Source of the DNA: an uncultured Bacteroidales bacterium
GTDB lineage: Bacteria; Bacteroidota; Bacteroidia; Bacteroidales; WCHB1-69
Direction: 5' to 3'
DNA length: 42,279 nucleotides
Assembly: GCA_905235135.1 (NCBI GenBank)
Contig: CAJOKR010000014.1
Span: 1-42,279, forward strand
Shown one piece after another: positions 481 through 17,332 of this stretch. Position 1 is the stretch's first letter. The number at the start of each line of letters is the position of its first letter. Made by a program: the position numbers and the translations under genes. The notes beneath the pieces are model-generated. The model saw only the letters and a list, made by a program, of their open reading frames with translations, was not told the DNA's origin and did no database searches.

Positions 481-510
481 TGTAGAGACACAAAAATTTG
501 CATCCCTACA
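481..510. repeat. Divergent copy of the 30-nt palindromic element
   Basis: TGTAGAGACAC at the left and GCATCCCTACA at the right are imperfect complements around an 8-nt centre, with the same 11-8-11 layout as the perfect palindromes at 2064-2093 and 11142-11171. It is immediately followed by an 11-nt tandem repeat array. Confidence 0.6.
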
Positions 511-2063: not shown

Positions 2064-2093
2064 TGTAGAGACGCACGGCCGTGCGTCTCTACA
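2064..2093. repeat. Perfect 30-nt palindrome (GTAGAGACGC element)
   Basis: Left arm TGTAGAGACGCAC pairs exactly with the right arm ending GTCTCTACA, so the element is self-complementary through its centre. A half copy (GTGCGTCTCTA) sits at 2101-2111. It lies between the end of the HHH gene and the mpg promoter. Other copies: 481-510 (divergent), 11142-11171, 13147-13174 (inside a gene) and 40257-40284 (degenerate). Confidence 0.85.
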
Positions 2094-11141: not shown

Positions 11142-11171
11142 TGTAGAGACGCGGCGCGCCGCGTCTCTACA
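11142..11171. repeat. Perfect 30-nt palindrome between convergent genes
   Basis: TGTAGAGACGC and GCGTCTCTACA arms surround GGCGCGCC. It fills the 57-nt gap between the ends of the receptor gene (11117) and the alpha-2-macroglobulin gene (11175). It could act as a two-way terminator, although it has no T run. Confidence 0.85.
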
Positions 11172-11174
11172 CGT

Positions 11175-14100
11175 TTACCGAACCTTCACCCTGATTCCAG
11201 CCGAATGCGACTGGAATTCCGGCGCGTACATACATTCTATGTGGGTGATGCCGTTGCTGAAGTCGCCCGACTGGGTAGCGAATAGGGTGTATTCGAAAAC
11301 GTACTTGCCCTTCGGCATCCAGTCGATGAAGAAGTGGGTGGCCGCATCTTTGGTGGATTCGTAGTACCAGAGGCCGTCCTGGTATTTGTACTGCGAGAAG
11401 ACGTTGACCGGTTCGAATGTGGCAGCGCGCATGTCCTTGAGATGTACGAATTCCATGTCGCGATCCACGGTGATGACCACCCGCACACGCACCTTGTCGC
11501 CCTTCTGTAGCAGCTGTCCTTCCGTGATGGCCTTCAGCACCTCGCCCTTGTCGGTGTTTTCCACCTTGTAGAGCTGCTTCTCGATAACGAGGTTTTTGTC
11601 ATCGCTGCGGGTGATTTTGTCCAGATTCTCGAAATACTGCCAGTAGAGGCCGCCCCAGGCAGGTCCGTCGGTGCCCTTTTCGATGCGCACATTGGCCTTA
11701 TCGGCTGTGATTTCCTCCGCCGTCCACGACTTCTTGAAGTAGCCGGTACCCGCCTCGGTCTGTGTGCTTTCGTCGGGCAGAAGCACACTCCCGACAGTGA
11801 CCGCCACAGTCTTGTCTTCCGCCACGAGCGTCTGGTTCAGCAGCAGCGAATAGACGGCCTCGGTAGTCGATTTGGTGGTACCCCAATGCTGGGTCTGCTT
11901 CTGCTTGAGCAGCCAAAGCTGCATCTGCGCTAATGACTCCGCATCCTCGGGTGTAATCGTATGGAACGCCTCAATCAGCATCGCCTGCCGCTCCACGGGC
12001 TGTTCGTACCAGAACCATCCCCCACCCTGCTTCTTCCAGAACATCCCCATCTCTTCGTCGTGTTGGGCCATGCTCTTCAGGTAGGCCACAATCTTCTTCG
12101 CCACCTGCTGGTCGCCGTTGCGCCAAGCGGTGAGCGCAATCATGGCCTGGGTGTAGAAGGTTTCGTCTTTCCAGCCTTTCAATAAAGCCTTGTAACAAGT
12201 GTCGTAAGCGGCCTTGTACTTCGAATCCAGATTCTGTTTGTAGAAGCTGCGGGCGTAGAGGTAGTGCGTCTCATCGACGTAAGTATAGTGGTATTTCTTA
12301 CGGTCGAGATAGCGCTGGTACATCTGCGCGTCCATGTAGGAGACGGCATTACGGAGGGTGCTGTTGGCCACGTCCGTGCTGACACCGAGGGCTTTCAGGT
12401 GGCCGAAGCCCGCCACAATGTGCCGCGTGATGAAATCGCTGCTCTTGCCGCCGGAGAACCACGGCCAGCCGCCGTCGCCGTTTTGCGCCTGTTGCAGCTT
12501 CTTGAGCGTGGAAGCTTCCTCCTTGGCCATCCGTTTGAAGTCGAACATCGCGGCCAGTGCTTGCTTGTTGGCTCCTTCGCGTTGCGCATCGAGCACCCAC
12601 GGGGTCTCCTCCAGCACAACCTGTTTTAACTCCTGGTTTTTTTCCAAGGCGGAGCAGAAGGCATCGGGACTCTCCACCTGCCAGCGGTTGAAGACCTCCT
12701 CAATGACAGGGTTGGCCTTCAGGATATGCGTGGCGAGGGCGTTGGCATAGTAGCGGCTGAAGCGCTGCTCGTTGCATTCGTGCGGGTATTCCATCATGTA
12801 GGGCATCGCCTGGATGGCGTACCAGACGGGGTTGGGGGTGCATTCCACGGTGAGGCGGTAATGTTTGAGGGTTTTGTTGGCCGTTGCGCCAAAAGAATCC
12901 TGCAATTTGTTGAACGTAAACGTTTTCGAGCCTTTCCTTGAGATGTAGAACGGCATCGTTTCCGTCACCATCATACGGTTGGTGAGCACGGGGAGGGTTT
13001 TCTCCTCGCCGTCGCCGGCAATGTCCTGCGGATCGGTGTTGTGGGCGATAATGCGGTAGGTGATGACGGGAATGTCAGCGGGGACCACGATGCGGAAATG
13101 GATTTCGGAGGAGGTGTTGGCGGGAATTTCGTATTGTTGGTTGCCTGTAGAGACGCAATGCATTGCGTCTCTACTGTCCGAATCCGTAATGATCATCGCA
13201 ATCGGTTGGTTATTCACCGCATTGAACATCTGCAACGTCACGTATCCGCAAATGTTCCGGCCGCTGGTGTTGACGATTTTGGCGGAGAAGTCCATGGTGT
13301 CACCCTCGCGGAGGAAGCGCGGCGCGTTGGGCACAATCATCACGTCCTTAGCGGTCTGCACGAACTTCTCGAAGCGGCCGCACTGGAGGGCTTGGTTGTG
13401 CGCCACACCCTGCATTTTCCACTTGGTGAGCGCGTCGGGCATGGTGAAGCTGATGAAGACGTCGCCGTTCGCATCGGTGCGCAGCTGCGGGTAGAAGAAG
13501 GCGGTCTCGGCGAAGTTGGTGCGGATTTGCTCGGTGTTAACAATGGTCGCTTCTCCTGCACCAGCAGCCTTGGCATCCTTGGCAGCCCTGGCAGCCCTGG
13601 GAGAATTGGCGGCCATAGGAGCCACTTCGTTCATGTCGTAAGACACAGCCATCTCCTCTACCACTATATTATCTTCAACGATGTTTAACACGACTTCATC
13701 TTTCCCATAGTTATGCATACAGGCATACGGGGAGAAGTTCATCCAATTCTTAATCAATCCAATAGAATAGTACAAATAGAGGTTTCGGTAGTTGTGTTCG
13801 CTGAAACTTCTTGACCAAGAGAGCATACCGAAATCGCCACGAGCACTATTCCAAGGGGTGAAGAAACTCAAACTGTGATTGTTACGACTCCCCAGGGCAT
13901 CCAAAGCCATGTCATACATCGAGCACAAAAGCTCTGCGGAGACGGGCTTTCCGTCCTTGTCCATCAAACGGATTTGGTACTCCTCCTGACTGCCTGGCAG
14001 GGTTTTGTCGCGGAACCGCAGGAACTCGAAACGGATGTCTTTCCTATCGTCAGTGACAGGAACCAAACGGGATTCCTCCTCTCTTTTGTTTCGATTAACG

Positions 14101-17093
14101 CTCAAGAAAAAGACACTCAATCCTCCTAAATCCTTGGAAGTCACCGGATAGGTAATTGTGTACGTTTTGCCACGCAACGAAATCCATTTCGCATACACCT
14201 TTTCATTATGGGAGTATATCTCGCAAAGGACATTCGCCTCGGGCAAAATGCTACCTATTGTGATGGTCAGATTATCCCCAATATTGACAGAATGATCCAT
14301 CGTAAACCACAACGGCTTATAGGTACTGCATTTCGGACTTTCTTCACGATAAACATGCACGTAATCCTCTGATTCTATGCGATTTCCGTTATCATCTTCC
14401 GTATAGAGCAGCACCTTATAGTAACCATCAGGCAGCTTGATAAAATTAGGGAAGGAGAAATATGCAGCAGTATCCTTATTCACGCTGACAAAGCCTTTCT
14501 GCAACGAAACGGCCGGCCAATTCTGTTTCTTTATCTCATCATTAAAGGCAATCCATGGGAATTTTCGACGAATCAGATTCGAATCGGTAATCATGACATC
14601 AGTCGTCACATCCAACTCATACTTATAGGTATTGGGTGTTTGCAAACGAAAAATCTCATAGCCGACCGTGCCGCTCTGTGGCTTCCCTGCCGTATTGGTC
14701 AGCGAAATCCGATACTGGTTATCGGTTTTACCAACAACTATCTCATCTGGTAAATCACAAGAAAGTAATAAGTTACGACTACTAACATAGACCACCGTGC
14801 TGCCGCTGTGCGTTTCTCCATTGATATCGGTGACATCCACAGAGACCTCATAGCGATAGAGGGGGGTAAATCTACGCAACGTCATATCCTCCTCCGTGGG
14901 GAAAGAGATGCGGAAGGTGCCGTCCTCATCCGTTTGCAGCGTGCCGTGAGCCACCATTTGCGGTTCGGAAGTGGGATGCCACCAATAGCTACGCCACCAT
15001 GGGAAGGAGGTGTTGCGGGTCACACGGTAGCTCACCGTAGCCCCATCAAGGGGATAACCTGCCAACGCCATTGCAGTGCCCTTCACCATCACTTCCTGAC
15101 CGATAGAGAAGGTCTTCTCCGGGCTCTCTACTTCCACCTCAAAGACCGGCAGTTTATACTCCTCCACGGAAAACGTGTGGGTAAACGACTGATTGCTCAC
15201 GTATGCATATATATGGTACGTACCAGAACGACCTCCTTCGGGCAACGTAAATTCACCTGCAAGAGAGCCAAACTCGTTGGTTCTCAACTCAATTTCCTCC
15301 ACTTGTTGGAAATTTGCATCCTTCAACGAGACTTTAACCGGGGTATCGGCGAGCAAGACAACCTGGTCATCTTGGTAAACAAACTCGAAAATTCCTTTGA
15401 AATGGACCGTTTGGGTTGGTCTATAGAGCGAACGATCGGTAAAGAGGTGGGCGTAGATACGGTCCTTGGGGGTGCTGCGCTCCATACGCCACCAATTATA
15501 ACTATTTGACTGGATAAGCGTCTGCCCCTGCCAAGAGACCGCAATGCCATTGCAGCCCATATATCGTTCTTTTTTCAAATCGAAGAAACAGAACCCGTCT
15601 CCATCGGTGGTCTGGACCAAAGTCTGTTTACCGACAGTCATGATCACCTTGGCATTGTGCAACGGTTCGCCAGTCTGTCGGTTTAAGGCCAGAATCTCTA
15701 ACCCGCGCTCTGTTTTACGTGGCAAAATTGCAATATCGCTAACCTGGAAAAACATGTACTCCCGCGGAGTTTTGTCATTCCATTTTTCGCACGGCTGGTC
15801 AGAAACAAGCAGCCAGTATGCTCCCGCAGGCAATTCGGGAAGCATGTAGCCCCCCCCATGAGACATCAAATCCTGCATATCGGGAAGGTCCACCACTTCC
15901 TCATACTCCGGTTTTTGCTCGACCAAATATTTAAAAACTTTGTCGTAGGTCAGCGCAATTGAAGTGGGGGTGGCTTTCACCACTTTTACGTGTAACTGTT
16001 TGCAATTCGTGTAGTTGACGTGCCATAAGGTAGCAGAACCCGTGGGGAAAATCTGGTTTTCCGCAAACAAGGCGGAAACCGAGAGAGCACGTCCATTCAG
16101 TTCGCGAACAGACCGATCCGCCGCATCCCGATAGAAGGATTGTCCCGAAGCGGTGAGAGATATCTTCAGCCATGATTCCGCCTTTCGCAGGTCATCACGA
16201 TAGGTCTCATCCGTTACTTGCCCCTCATAATTCGATTTAGTTTTATACCGCTCCAAATATAAGCATCCGATTTTATAAGCAATCAATCCATAGCCGTCCA
16301 TCTGTTCGCGTTTTTGCGCCCATTTTTCCAGATGCTGGATGTACCAGTCGATGGAATTGTCAGGCGCCAGTCCCTGACTGCGCATGAAATCACAACGCCC
16401 GATTGTCAACATGGTGAGACCCATCTCATTATTTTGAGCGATATGATGTCGTGTAAGCTCTTGATATACAGAAAGTATCATCTGTAGTACAGACGATGAA
16501 TCCGTAATGGACAACGGCATTTTCAGAAATTGGTCATTATCCCAAAGGGCATCGCCAGAAACCGACCTATCGGGAAGCTCATCCATCAAATCCGACTCTA
16601 GGTAATCGATAACGCGGTAGGCCAGCACCTCGTACAACGTCTTGACTTGCAACTGCTTTTCCTTTTTCAGCAGCAGGACCGAATACTCCTTCGCATCGAC
16701 AGCTTGCAATTCTTTGGCATCTTTCAGCGACCGCAGGTACTCCTCGCGGGCGCGACGCTGGAAGGTTTTCGCATCCCACTCCTTGAAGTCTTTCGGAGTT
16801 TCATCGGCGACTTCCGTGCGCTGGCGGAAGCGGTAGCGGTTCTCGTTGTAATACTCATCGAGGTACTGCGCCAGGCAGCTGTGCCATATCGCGTTGGCGA
16901 CGGGATCTTTCTCCGTAGCCGCAATCTGCTCGTTGAGGATGCGGTAGGCGGAGTCCGCGCCGTCGTCGTATTTCTCGCAAAGATGGCGGATCTCGTCCCA
17001 TTTCTTGGCGATCGCCGCCGGGGACTGGGACTGTCCGGAGGCGGTGATGAGGGTGGTGATGACCATGGTGGCGGTGATTAGGGTTCGTTTCAT
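11175..17093 (-). CDS. Alpha-2-macroglobulin family protein with thioester motif
   Basis: A 1972-residue exported protein with a signal peptide (about 1-20) and no lipobox cysteine. An N-terminal helical region (to about 340) is followed by macroglobulin beta domains, including an MG2-like segment (DRSLYRPTQTVHFKG). A bait-like stretch and the A2M domain (YPQLRTDANGDVFISFTMPDALTKWKMQGVAH) come next, then the thioester motif CNEQ at C1440-Q1443 in HECNEQRFSRYYANALA, an alpha-helical thioester domain and a receptor-like C-terminus. Bacterial homologues trap proteases in the cell envelope. A ten-residue insertion at 1307-1316 (SRDAMHCVST) is encoded by the palindromic repeat at 13147-13174. Parts of the gene (13640-16620) are clearly AT-richer than the rest. 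The start at 17093 precedes a clear signal peptide. Confidence 0.93.
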   Translation of the reverse strand: MKRTLITATMVITTLITASGQSQSPAAIAKKWDEIRHLCEKYDDGADSAYRILNEQIAATEKDPVANAIWHSCLAQYLDEYYNENRYRFRQRTEVADETPKDFKEWDAKTFQRRAREEYLRSLKDAKELQAVDAKEYSVLLLKKEKQLQVKTLYEVLAYRVIDYLESDLMDELPDRSVSGDALWDNDQFLKMPLSITDSSSVLQMILSVYQELTRHHIAQNNEMGLTMLTIGRCDFMRSQGLAPDNSIDWYIQHLEKWAQKREQMDGYGLIAYKIGCLYLERYKTKSNYEGQVTDETYRDDLRKAESWLKISLTASGQSFYRDAADRSVRELNGRALSVSALFAENQIFPTGSATLWHVNYTNCKQLHVKVVKATPTSIALTYDKVFKYLVEQKPEYEEVVDLPDMQDLMSHGGGYMLPELPAGAYWLLVSDQPCEKWNDKTPREYMFFQVSDIAILPRKTERGLEILALNRQTGEPLHNAKVIMTVGKQTLVQTTDGDGFCFFDLKKERYMGCNGIAVSWQGQTLIQSNSYNWWRMERSTPKDRIYAHLFTDRSLYRPTQTVHFKGIFEFVYQDDQVVLLADTPVKVSLKDANFQQVEEIELRTNEFGSLAGEFTLPEGGRSGTYHIYAYVSNQSFTHTFSVEEYKLPVFEVEVESPEKTFSIGQEVMVKGTAMALAGYPLDGATVSYRVTRNTSFPWWRSYWWHPTSEPQMVAHGTLQTDEDGTFRISFPTEEDMTLRRFTPLYRYEVSVDVTDINGETHSGSTVVYVSSRNLLLSCDLPDEIVVGKTDNQYRISLTNTAGKPQSGTVGYEIFRLQTPNTYKYELDVTTDVMITDSNLIRRKFPWIAFNDEIKKQNWPAVSLQKGFVSVNKDTAAYFSFPNFIKLPDGYYKVLLYTEDDNGNRIESEDYVHVYREESPKCSTYKPLWFTMDHSVNIGDNLTITIGSILPEANVLCEIYSHNEKVYAKWISLRGKTYTITYPVTSKDLGGLSVFFLSVNRNKREEESRLVPVTDDRKDIRFEFLRFRDKTLPGSQEEYQIRLMDKDGKPVSAELLCSMYDMALDALGSRNNHSLSFFTPWNSARGDFGMLSWSRSFSEHNYRNLYLYYSIGLIKNWMNFSPYACMHNYGKDEVVLNIVEDNIVVEEMAVSYDMNEVAPMAANSPRAARAAKDAKAAGAGEATIVNTEQIRTNFAETAFFYPQLRTDANGDVFISFTMPDALTKWKMQGVAHNQALQCGRFEKFVQTAKDVMIVPNAPRFLREGDTMDFSAKIVNTSGRNICGYVTLQMFNAVNNQPIAMIITDSDSRDAMHCVSTGNQQYEIPANTSSEIHFRIVVPADIPVITYRIIAHNTDPQDIAGDGEEKTLPVLTNRMMVTETMPFYISRKGSKTFTFNKLQDSFGATANKTLKHYRLTVECTPNPVWYAIQAMPYMMEYPHECNEQRFSRYYANALATHILKANPVIEEVFNRWQVESPDAFCSALEKNQELKQVVLEETPWVLDAQREGANKQALAAMFDFKRMAKEEASTLKKLQQAQNGDGGWPWFSGGKSSDFITRHIVAGFGHLKALGVSTDVANSTLRNAVSYMDAQMYQRYLDRKKYHYTYVDETHYLYARSFYKQNLDSKYKAAYDTCYKALLKGWKDETFYTQAMIALTAWRNGDQQVAKKIVAYLKSMAQHDEEMGMFWKKQGGGWFWYEQPVERQAMLIEAFHTITPEDAESLAQMQLWLLKQKQTQHWGTTKSTTEAVYSLLLNQTLVAEDKTVAVTVGSVLLPDESTQTEAGTGYFKKSWTAEEITADKANVRIEKGTDGPAWGGLYWQYFENLDKITRSDDKNLVIEKQLYKVENTDKGEVLKAITEGQLLQKGDKVRVRVVITVDRDMEFVHLKDMRAATFEPVNVFSQYKYQDGLWYYESTKDAATHFFIDWMPKGKYVFEYTLFATQSGDFSNGITHIECMYAPEFQSHSAGIRVKVR
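13147..13174. repeat. Palindromic element inserted in frame inside the A2M gene
   Basis: A perfect 28-nt palindrome with the same GTAGAGACGC/GCGTCTCTAC arms as the intergenic copies and centre AATGCATT. With one flanking base on each side it makes ten codons and leaves the reading frame intact. It falls between the macroglobulin segment ending IAMIITD and the following QQYEIPANTSSEIHF. Confidence 0.9.
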
Positions 17094-17160
17094 ATCTTTG
17101 TGGGTTATCGGAACGCCTCTCCGAGGCTGCTCAAGAAAGTACTCTAATAGAATACATCGG

Positions 17161-17168
17161 CAAAAATA
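17161..17168 (-). promoter_or_regulatory. -7 box of the A2M promoter
   Basis: TATTTTTG on the minus strand, followed by CCG. A TTGTG element lies about 20 nt upstream. The leader to 17093 would be roughly 60 nt. Confidence 0.6.
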
Positions 17169-17332
17169 CAATTTCCGAAGACACAACGGGAATATGTTGG
17201 TTTAATTGTGTTTCCGCTTTATCGATTGTTCATAACTTAGTTTATGGAATGTTGATAACTCACCCACGAAGCCCTCGCAAAAATTCGGATATTTGCCGTT
17301 GCGAAAAAACAATTAACGATTCTGTGTAAGAT

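What the first reader, a model, noticed from the sequence alone, without database searches (positions are those of the whole stretch)
13147..13174. Palindromic element inserted in frame in alpha-2-macroglobulin
A perfect 28-nt palindrome of the family seen between genes (2064, 11142, divergent 481, decayed 40257) lies within this gene and adds ten residues (1307-1316) without breaking the frame. Its length with flanks is 30 nt, a multiple of three. This parallels the Rickettsia palindromic elements, which insert in genes and are translated; I know of no such case described for this group. An extra cysteine is introduced next to the thioester region.
Basis: partly seen in the sequence, partly recalled or inferred. 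Interest (0 to 1): 0.8.

Follow-up and report, generated by a model that had tools for sequence, protein, structure and literature searches.

The report
Mobile palindrome inside a macroglobulin gene
A 28-letter mobile DNA palindrome of a known bacterial type sits in frame inside a protease-inhibitor gene and adds ten residues to its reading frame; in related species the same spot is still occupied, but the middle of the palindrome has been swapped for other versions, which suggests such elements are overwritten in place.

Summary
GTAGAGACGC-AATGCATT-GCGTCTCTAC at 13147-13174 lies in frame in an intact 2003-aa alpha-2-macroglobulin ORF (residues 1338-1347), one of 125 exact copies in this genome. 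It is an insertion: of 28 orthologous loci covering the site, 14 carry it or a remnant, 13 are empty, one has an independent insertion. The Rickettsia comparison is fair as analogy, but the element is an already described kind: a 'double-foot' REP of the TnpA-REP subclass 2.4 / RAYT group 4 type (Quentin 2018), whose REPs also sit in frame inside their own transposase genes, as I found here. In-frame REPs in other genes are known too (Di Nocera 2013). Not found in print: at two coding sites the palindrome stays in place while its core changes among 5 and at least 8 types; arms keep 86-100% identity at fourfold positions against 52-58% elsewhere. One genome's abundant core fills all three coding sites examined in it. 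This suggests replacement in place; the mechanism is inferred.

The parts
13147..13174 (.). Double-foot REP palindrome GTAGAGACGC-AATGCATT-GCGTCTCTAC, in frame inside A2M (site A)
   Evidence: orthologue comparison
11175..17186 (-). Alpha-2-macroglobulin family protein, 2003 aa ORF (likely start Met32), with MG2, A2M and bMG10 domains
12765..12776 (-). Thioester-like CNEQ motif, aa 1471-1474, 124 residues after the insert
   Evidence: position; meaning of the motif recalled
12867..12890 (-). Site B of A2M (approximate): empty here, filled by REPs with other cores or by REP-like arrays in relatives
11143..11170 (.). REP copy just downstream of the A2M stop, core GGCGCGCC; same core at the matching place in G012
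2065..2092 (.). REP copy, core ACGGCCGT; no coding-like frame spans it
482..509 (.). Decayed REP copy (3 mismatches)

Best explanation
The palindrome is a copy of a double-foot REP (GTAG at one foot, CTAC at the other) mobilised by a REP-associated tyrosine transposase (RAYT / TnpA-REP) of the subclass 2.4 type. The genome encodes one such transposase at G000:C86, and that gene carries a REP (feet decayed) inside its own reading frame. A copy entered a tolerant stretch of A2M in the ancestor of the 14 sampled carriers. It was kept because its net length is a multiple of three and it is not read in the one phase that gives a stop (G-TAG). It has presumably been translated as about ten residues since. 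The palindrome at that place has later been overwritten by other core families active in each genome, while its position, frame and outer arms mostly stayed. Shown: the insertion, its age relative to the gene tree, the transposase association and the core turnover. Inferred: that the RAYT makes the insertions, that overwriting happens by hairpin exchange at the feet or by recombination over the shared arms, and that the peptide is near neutral.
For: 125 exact copies, most of those listed with self-palindromic cores. [quoted passage not shown] In RAYT loci fetched without regard to the palindrome, 19 of 30 ORFs (class search) and 5 of 30 (relatives; L239 is in both sets) hold an internal perfect palindrome of 20 nt or more. 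Control ORFs of the same loci: 6 palindromes in 142 ORFs, 2 of them the RAYT itself (L254, L285) missed by my filter, the other 4 in L275. Co-occurrence: 26 of 37 palindrome-bearing class genomes have the RAYT against 97 of 358 others, Fisher p 3e-7. The RAYT matches NCBIfam REP_Tyr_transpos (E 6e-10 and 9e-16) and, as a profile, PDB 4er8 TnpArep (E 6e-9). A2M site A: 14 loci with element or remnant, 13 empty, 1 independent, 2 not covering. Tree: the 13 carriers used form one clade, support 100/99 (24 of 30 rows used). Turnover: 5 core types at A2M site A, at least 8 in a second gene. Covariation score and percentage paired exceed all 500 shuffles at both sites. Fourfold third bases in the arms, decayed copies included: 275 of 321 pair comparisons identical in the second gene (13 species) and 145 of 145 in A2M (13 of 14 loci), against 52-58% in the rest of the genes. 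G003 has 68 GATTAATC copies, 13 of the 16 other genomes checked have none, and its A2M sites A and B and its second gene all carry GATTAATC.
Against: The RAYT proteins score below NCBIfam's curated cut-off (39 and 58 bits against 80) and had no Pfam hit at E 0.001; the published subclass 2.4 motifs fit loosely (6 of 8 NH[IFV]H, 8 of 8 WQ, 3 of 8 YIxNNP). 11 of 37 palindrome-bearing class genomes have no detected RAYT. In G000 the RAYT's own core is AAAATTTT, not the AATGCATT found in A2M. Internal and flanking cores of a RAYT locus often agree but not always (L237, L276, L277, L280). The core at the coding sites does not always agree within a genome (e.g. G002, G012, G020). Two of five pair measures are not exceptional for the second gene (pairs changed on both sides reached by 68 of 500 shuffles, further types by 71 of 500) and one for A2M (56 of 500). 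No clean empty-site pair was found, so the inserted length and target are not established. A2M of G020 and G006 is a mosaic, so part of the core scatter may come from recombination of the gene. Expression is not shown.
Confidence: 0.83

Rival explanations
1. Tolerant-loop hotspot: REPs inserted independently many times into the same A2M and second-gene loops, so different cores mean different insertions rather than replacement.
For: L037 shows an independent insertion in the same A2M loop in another phase, with its sister L041 empty. A2M site B has at least 6 states, including empty and arrays.
Against: In the second gene the palindrome or remnant is at the same aligned place and phase in 13 species with at least 8 cores. 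Independent events would be expected to scatter over positions and over the two open phases.
Confidence: 0.3
2. The palindrome is kept in the genes by selection on a DNA or RNA hairpin or on the peptide, and the core drifts by compensatory point mutation.
For: Covariation at both coding sites and arms conserved at synonymous positions. L027 and L030 have changed arms that still pair in part.
Against: Several site cores are sequences that are abundant elsewhere, e.g. GATTAATC with 68 copies in G003. The site is lost by central deletion in L025 and decayed in L023, L027, L301 and L307. Encoded peptides differ (RDAMHCVS, RDVPWRVS, RDAINRVS).
Confidence: 0.15
3. A Rickettsia-type palindromic element, i.e. 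the same family as RPE.
For: Both are dispersed palindromes read in frame inside genes.
Against: Di Nocera 2013 (sections 6 and 16 read) puts R. conorii RPE-4 and RPE-6 in the CGTC-tagged class, which has no associated transposase gene. This element has GTAG/CTAC feet and a RAYT.
Confidence: 0.03
4. Assembly artefact or chance palindrome.
For: The genome is a 118-contig assembly, 88% complete.
Against: Orthologous genes in 13 other fetched loci carry the element or its remnant at the same site; the shuffles gave none.
Confidence: 0.01

Closest known systems
Double-foot REP sequences of TnpA-REP subclass 2.4 (RAYT group 4), Quentin et al. 2018, PMC6006769
   Same: GTAG and CTAC feet; a HUH tyrosine transposase with similar motifs; [quoted passage not shown] Bacteroidetes and Cyanobacteria.
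   Different: The copy studied here is in an unrelated gene (A2M). The parts that I read do not describe the core changing at orthologous coding sites.
Intragenic GTAG REPs, Di Nocera et al. 2013, PMC3733652
   Same: REPs inside ORFs; different REPs at about the same site of recB in two Xanthomonas species.
   Different: Their GTAG families have an unpaired tag at one end; here both feet pair. The paper lists CGTC, not GTAG, repeats for Bacteroidetes.
Rickettsia palindromic elements (RPE); recalled, plus remarks in PMC3733652
   Same: Palindromes read in frame inside genes.
   Different: RPE-4 and RPE-6 are CGTC-tagged, without an associated transposase gene.
Small dispersed repeats of cyanobacteria (Elhai et al. 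2008); recalled, paper not held
   Same: Very short mobile repeats; the present element also occurs in Nostoc and Calothrix contigs.
   Different: Could not be compared.

Membership tests
[quoted passage not shown]
   GTAG...CTAC palindrome, 125 copies
Double-foot REP of TnpA-REP subclass 2.4 | Cognate tnpA-REP gene flanked by such REPs | tested here: met
   palindromes within 400 nt of 12 of 30 (class) and 11 of 30 (relatives) RAYT ORFs, e.g. L242, L237, L243; own L239 has a downstream copy with incomplete feet
Double-foot REP of TnpA-REP subclass 2.4 | REPs inserted in frame within the tnpA-REP gene between HuH and Y motifs | tested here: met
   internal palindromes in 19 of 30 and 5 of 30 RAYT ORFs; own copy L239 included
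Double-foot REP of TnpA-REP subclass 2.4 | Transposase motifs NH[IFV]H, WQ, YIxNNP (table passage of PMC6006769) | tested here: inconclusive
   of 8 full-length proteins aligned, 6 have NHIH or NHFH (2 have NHLH), 8 have WQ, 3 have YIxNNP exactly; the own copy has NHIH, WQ and YIENNVA
Double-foot REP of TnpA-REP subclass 2.4 | Placement in the published subclass tree | not tested
   the paper's sequences were not at hand
Double-foot REP of TnpA-REP subclass 2.4 | Transposase cuts and joins the REP | not testable with these tools
   biochemistry needed
GTAG REP in the sense of Di Nocera 2013 | GTAG tag unpaired at one end only | tested here: not met
   both ends pair
Rickettsia palindromic element | CGTC tag at one end, no associated tyrosine transposase gene | tested here: not met
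   GTAG/CTAC ends and RAYT association
Alpha-2-macroglobulin family (host gene) | MG2, A2M and bMG10 domains | tested here: met
   Pfam above cut-off for all three

The most novel reading that the evidence does not exclude
REP cassettes are exchanged in place: a RAYT or arm-based recombination swaps the hairpin core of an existing REP, even inside coding sequence, so that a genome's active REP family sweeps through old insertion sites and rewrites a few residues of host proteins each time.
Probability: 0.5. Interest if true: 0.65.

Novelty: new member of a known kind. Interest (0 to 1): 0.5.

Why it matters
The A2M copy adds a phylogenetically placed, in-frame REP in a non-transposase gene of Bacteroidota. 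The orthologous coding sites work as fixed recorders: because flanks and frame are held by the protein, they let one separate new insertion from replacement of an existing REP, a question about how REP families turn over. If replacement is right, mobile hairpins repeatedly rewrite short peptides in working proteins.

Tried and rejected
Literature search by the sequence itself gave 413 papers; the 20 listed looked like unrelated primer hits by title and were not opened. The Pfam Y1_Tnp model found 4 other transposases in the genome, none with GTAGAGACG in the 2-3.3 kb fetched round it; the cognate RAYT at C86 was not among them and came from the protein search. Of three borderline intragenic copies, L002 and L085 looked like antisense frames by eye and were dropped without further test; L013, L086, L094 and L098 lie within a few codons of the edge of a coding-like frame and were not resolved. 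Clean empty sites and target duplication: one loose pair only; 2 of 51 copies share a flanking dinucleotide, and T stands next to 70 of 102 ends. AlphaFold of the A2M fragment from a single sequence was poor (mean pLDDT 38.4); the insert falls in a stretch without helix or strand and below pLDDT 50, weak support for a loop, and no fold search was made. Solved-structure search for the fragment gave weak hits to TEP1 (E 0.002). The 22 'inside an ORF' rows among the far contigs were not checked as genes except the RAYTs. L310 and L311 of the second gene were dropped by my filter, leaving 28 of 30 loci. My first fourfold-site count used only rows with intact arms (9 of 13 and 8 of 14 loci), which favours the arms; I repeated it with decayed copies in (86% instead of 90% in the second gene, still 100% in A2M). 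The restricted co-occurrence used a rough hand list and is not relied on. My notebook gives 13 RAYT ORFs in 12 loci; the output shows 12 in 11.

Full report
Observation. The window holds a perfect 28-nt palindrome at 13147-13174. It is one of 4 places in the window matching GTAGAGACGC-N8-GCGTCTCTAC within 3 mismatches, where 100 shuffles give none. The genome has 125 exact copies and none of the pattern read backwards. The main cores among the copies listed (AAAATTTT, AATGCATT, ACGGCCGT, GGCGCGCC) are self-palindromic; a minority of copies have a mismatch. The copy lies in an uninterrupted 2003-aa ORF on the minus strand with MG2, A2M and bMG10 domains and supplies residues 1338-1347, SRDAMHCVST. 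By its letters the palindrome is open in two of the three phases on either strand; the third begins with TAG.

Orthologues. A protein search of 60 relatives (own genome included) found A2M in 49. Of the 30 loci fetched, 2 (L034, L035) do not cover the site. Fourteen carry the palindrome or a recognisable remnant at the site: L020-L032 and L038. Thirteen have no insert there: L033, L036, L039-L049. One, L037, has a different palindrome in the same loop in another phase, while its sister L041 is empty. In a tree of 24 of these proteins made without the two insert regions, the 13 carriers used form one clade with support 100/99, and empty genes lie outside it. So the ten residues are an old insertion, and the loop was hit a second time in another lineage. 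About 100 codons further on, site B is empty in six genomes (this one, G002, G009, G012, G014, G025), holds palindromes of several cores in others (G003, G027, G001, G013, decayed in G026 and G005), and holds in-frame arrays in three (G006, G020, G031).

What the element is. The 80 record titles shown name Bacteroidota, Cyanobacteria, Planctomycetes, Acidobacteria, Anaerolineae, Desulfamplus, Parcubacteria, Moranbacteria and others. Clustering the ORFs of all 118 gave one leading family, in 11 loci: a small HUH tyrosine transposase. Each of its 12 ORFs has the palindrome inside the stop-to-stop frame. [quoted passage not shown] L126 has it before the likely start, L203 near the C-terminus, L175 before HuH, and one L162 ORF is a fragment. 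To remove the selection bias I searched with transposase proteins instead. In 60 relatives, 34 genomes matched, including the own genome at C86; in the class sample, 123 of 395 matched. Of 30 transposase ORFs from each, 5 and 19 have an internal perfect palindrome of at least 20 nt, and 11 and 12 have one within 400 nt (L239 is in both sets). The loci are the best matches only, not all genomes with a match. Other ORFs of 200 aa or more in the same loci gave 6 palindromes in 142 ORFs; two of these are the transposase itself missed by my filter, four are in L275. Within a transposase locus, internal and flanking cores often agree (L242, L245, L243, L254) but not always (L237, L276, L277, L280). 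Palindrome and transposase co-occur across the same class sample: 26 of 37 palindrome-bearing genomes have the transposase against 97 of 358 others, Fisher p 3e-7. The protein matches NCBIfam REP-associated tyrosine transposase (E 6e-10 and 9e-16, below the curated cut-off) and, as a profile, PDB 4er8 TnpArep (E 6e-9). It had no Pfam hit at E 0.001.

Comparison with what is known. This is a described system. Quentin et al. 2018 (PMC6006769; section 13 whole and passages) define TnpA-REP subclass 2.4, to which RAYT group 4 is assigned, abundant in Cyanobacteria and Bacteroidetes. It has double-foot REPs and, uniquely, REPs inserted in frame within the tnpA genes, generally between HuH and Y. 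The subclass's motif letters fit the proteins here only in part (6 of 8 NH[IFV]H, 8 of 8 WQ, 3 of 8 YIxNNP), and I could not place them in the published tree. Di Nocera et al. 2013 (PMC3733652; sections 5, 6, 15, 16 and part of 17) report REPs inside genes of several species and note different REPs at about the same recB site in two Xanthomonas species. The A2M copy is therefore a new member of a known kind. It works like a Rickettsia palindromic element but is not one.

What appears to be new. Of the 51 copies examined out of 125 in this genome, two look truly mid-gene: A2M and the ORF in L093 at G000:C11 (a few others near frame edges were not resolved). The second has orthologues in 37 of 40 genus genomes. 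Of 28 aligned loci (30 fetched), 13 (L296-L308) carry the palindrome or a remnant at the same aligned place and phase, with at least 8 core types; L297 has two copies; 15 loci have none. At A2M site A there are 5 core types, counting the one with changed arms. Covariation of the two arms exceeds all 500 shuffles in score, in percentage paired and in cells changed on both sides at both sites; pairs changed on both sides were reached by 68 of 500 shuffles (second gene) and 1 of 500 (A2M), and further pair types by 71 and 56. Fourfold third bases in the arms, decayed copies included, are identical in 275 of 321 pair comparisons in the second gene (one copy from each of 13 species) and 145 of 145 in A2M (13 of 14 loci; L025 lacks the centre). 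In the rest of the genes it is 2786 of 4993 (9 rows) and 9141 of 15902 (8 rows). In G003 the GATTAATC core has 68 of its 145 copies; among 16 other genomes 13 have none. The three coding sites examined in G003 (A2M A and B, second gene) all carry that core, while orthologous sites in the other genomes carry other cores or none. In this genome both coding sites carry AATGCATT, which has 21 copies here. The simplest account is replacement of the palindrome in place by the family active in each genome. Against it: several genomes have different cores at the two genes, some A2M genes are recombinant mosaics, and repeated insertion also happens (L037, probably site B).

Mechanism, with what is shown and what is inferred. 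Shown: insertion, relative age, frame, transposase association and core turnover. Inferred: that the RAYT inserts the element as single-stranded hairpins; that in-frame copies in open phases survive selection; that the peptide is near neutral in a loop (the fold prediction was too poor to show this); and that exchange uses the shared feet and arms, by the transposase or by recombination. Flanks show no target duplication and a preference for T next to the feet, at 70 of 102 ends.

Limits of the print search. In searches of the open-licence library I saw the listings (6 to 20 titles each) and opened four papers: PMC3733652, PMC6006769, and by passages PMC2817692 and PMC12306157. None of what I saw reports core replacement at orthologous coding REP sites or a REP in A2M. 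Elhai et al. 2008 is not held. Absence elsewhere is not shown.

Noticed in passing
L030, L031, L032 (A2M site B): In-frame tandem arrays of decayed REP-like units encode repeats such as DAMNRNS, of different length in the three species.
   Followed up: partly
L031, L032 versus window A2M: A2M of G020 and G006 is 73-74% identical to ours up to aa 1436 and 92% after it, a sign of recombination inside the gene.
   Followed up: no
L027 and L030 site A: The palindrome there has another arm, GTGGCGAC..., which may be a GTGG-foot REP family.
   Followed up: no
L017 (G000:C6) and L016 (G000:C111): Other Y1 transposases of this genome lie beside different short repeats, without GTAGAGACG in the fetched stretch.
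   Followed up: no
G338:C22:35019-35569: Five copies of one imperfect palindrome clustered in 550 bases.
   Followed up: no
L285, L284 (RAYT ORFs): Internal palindromes there run to 52 and 44 nt, well beyond the 28-nt element.
   Followed up: no
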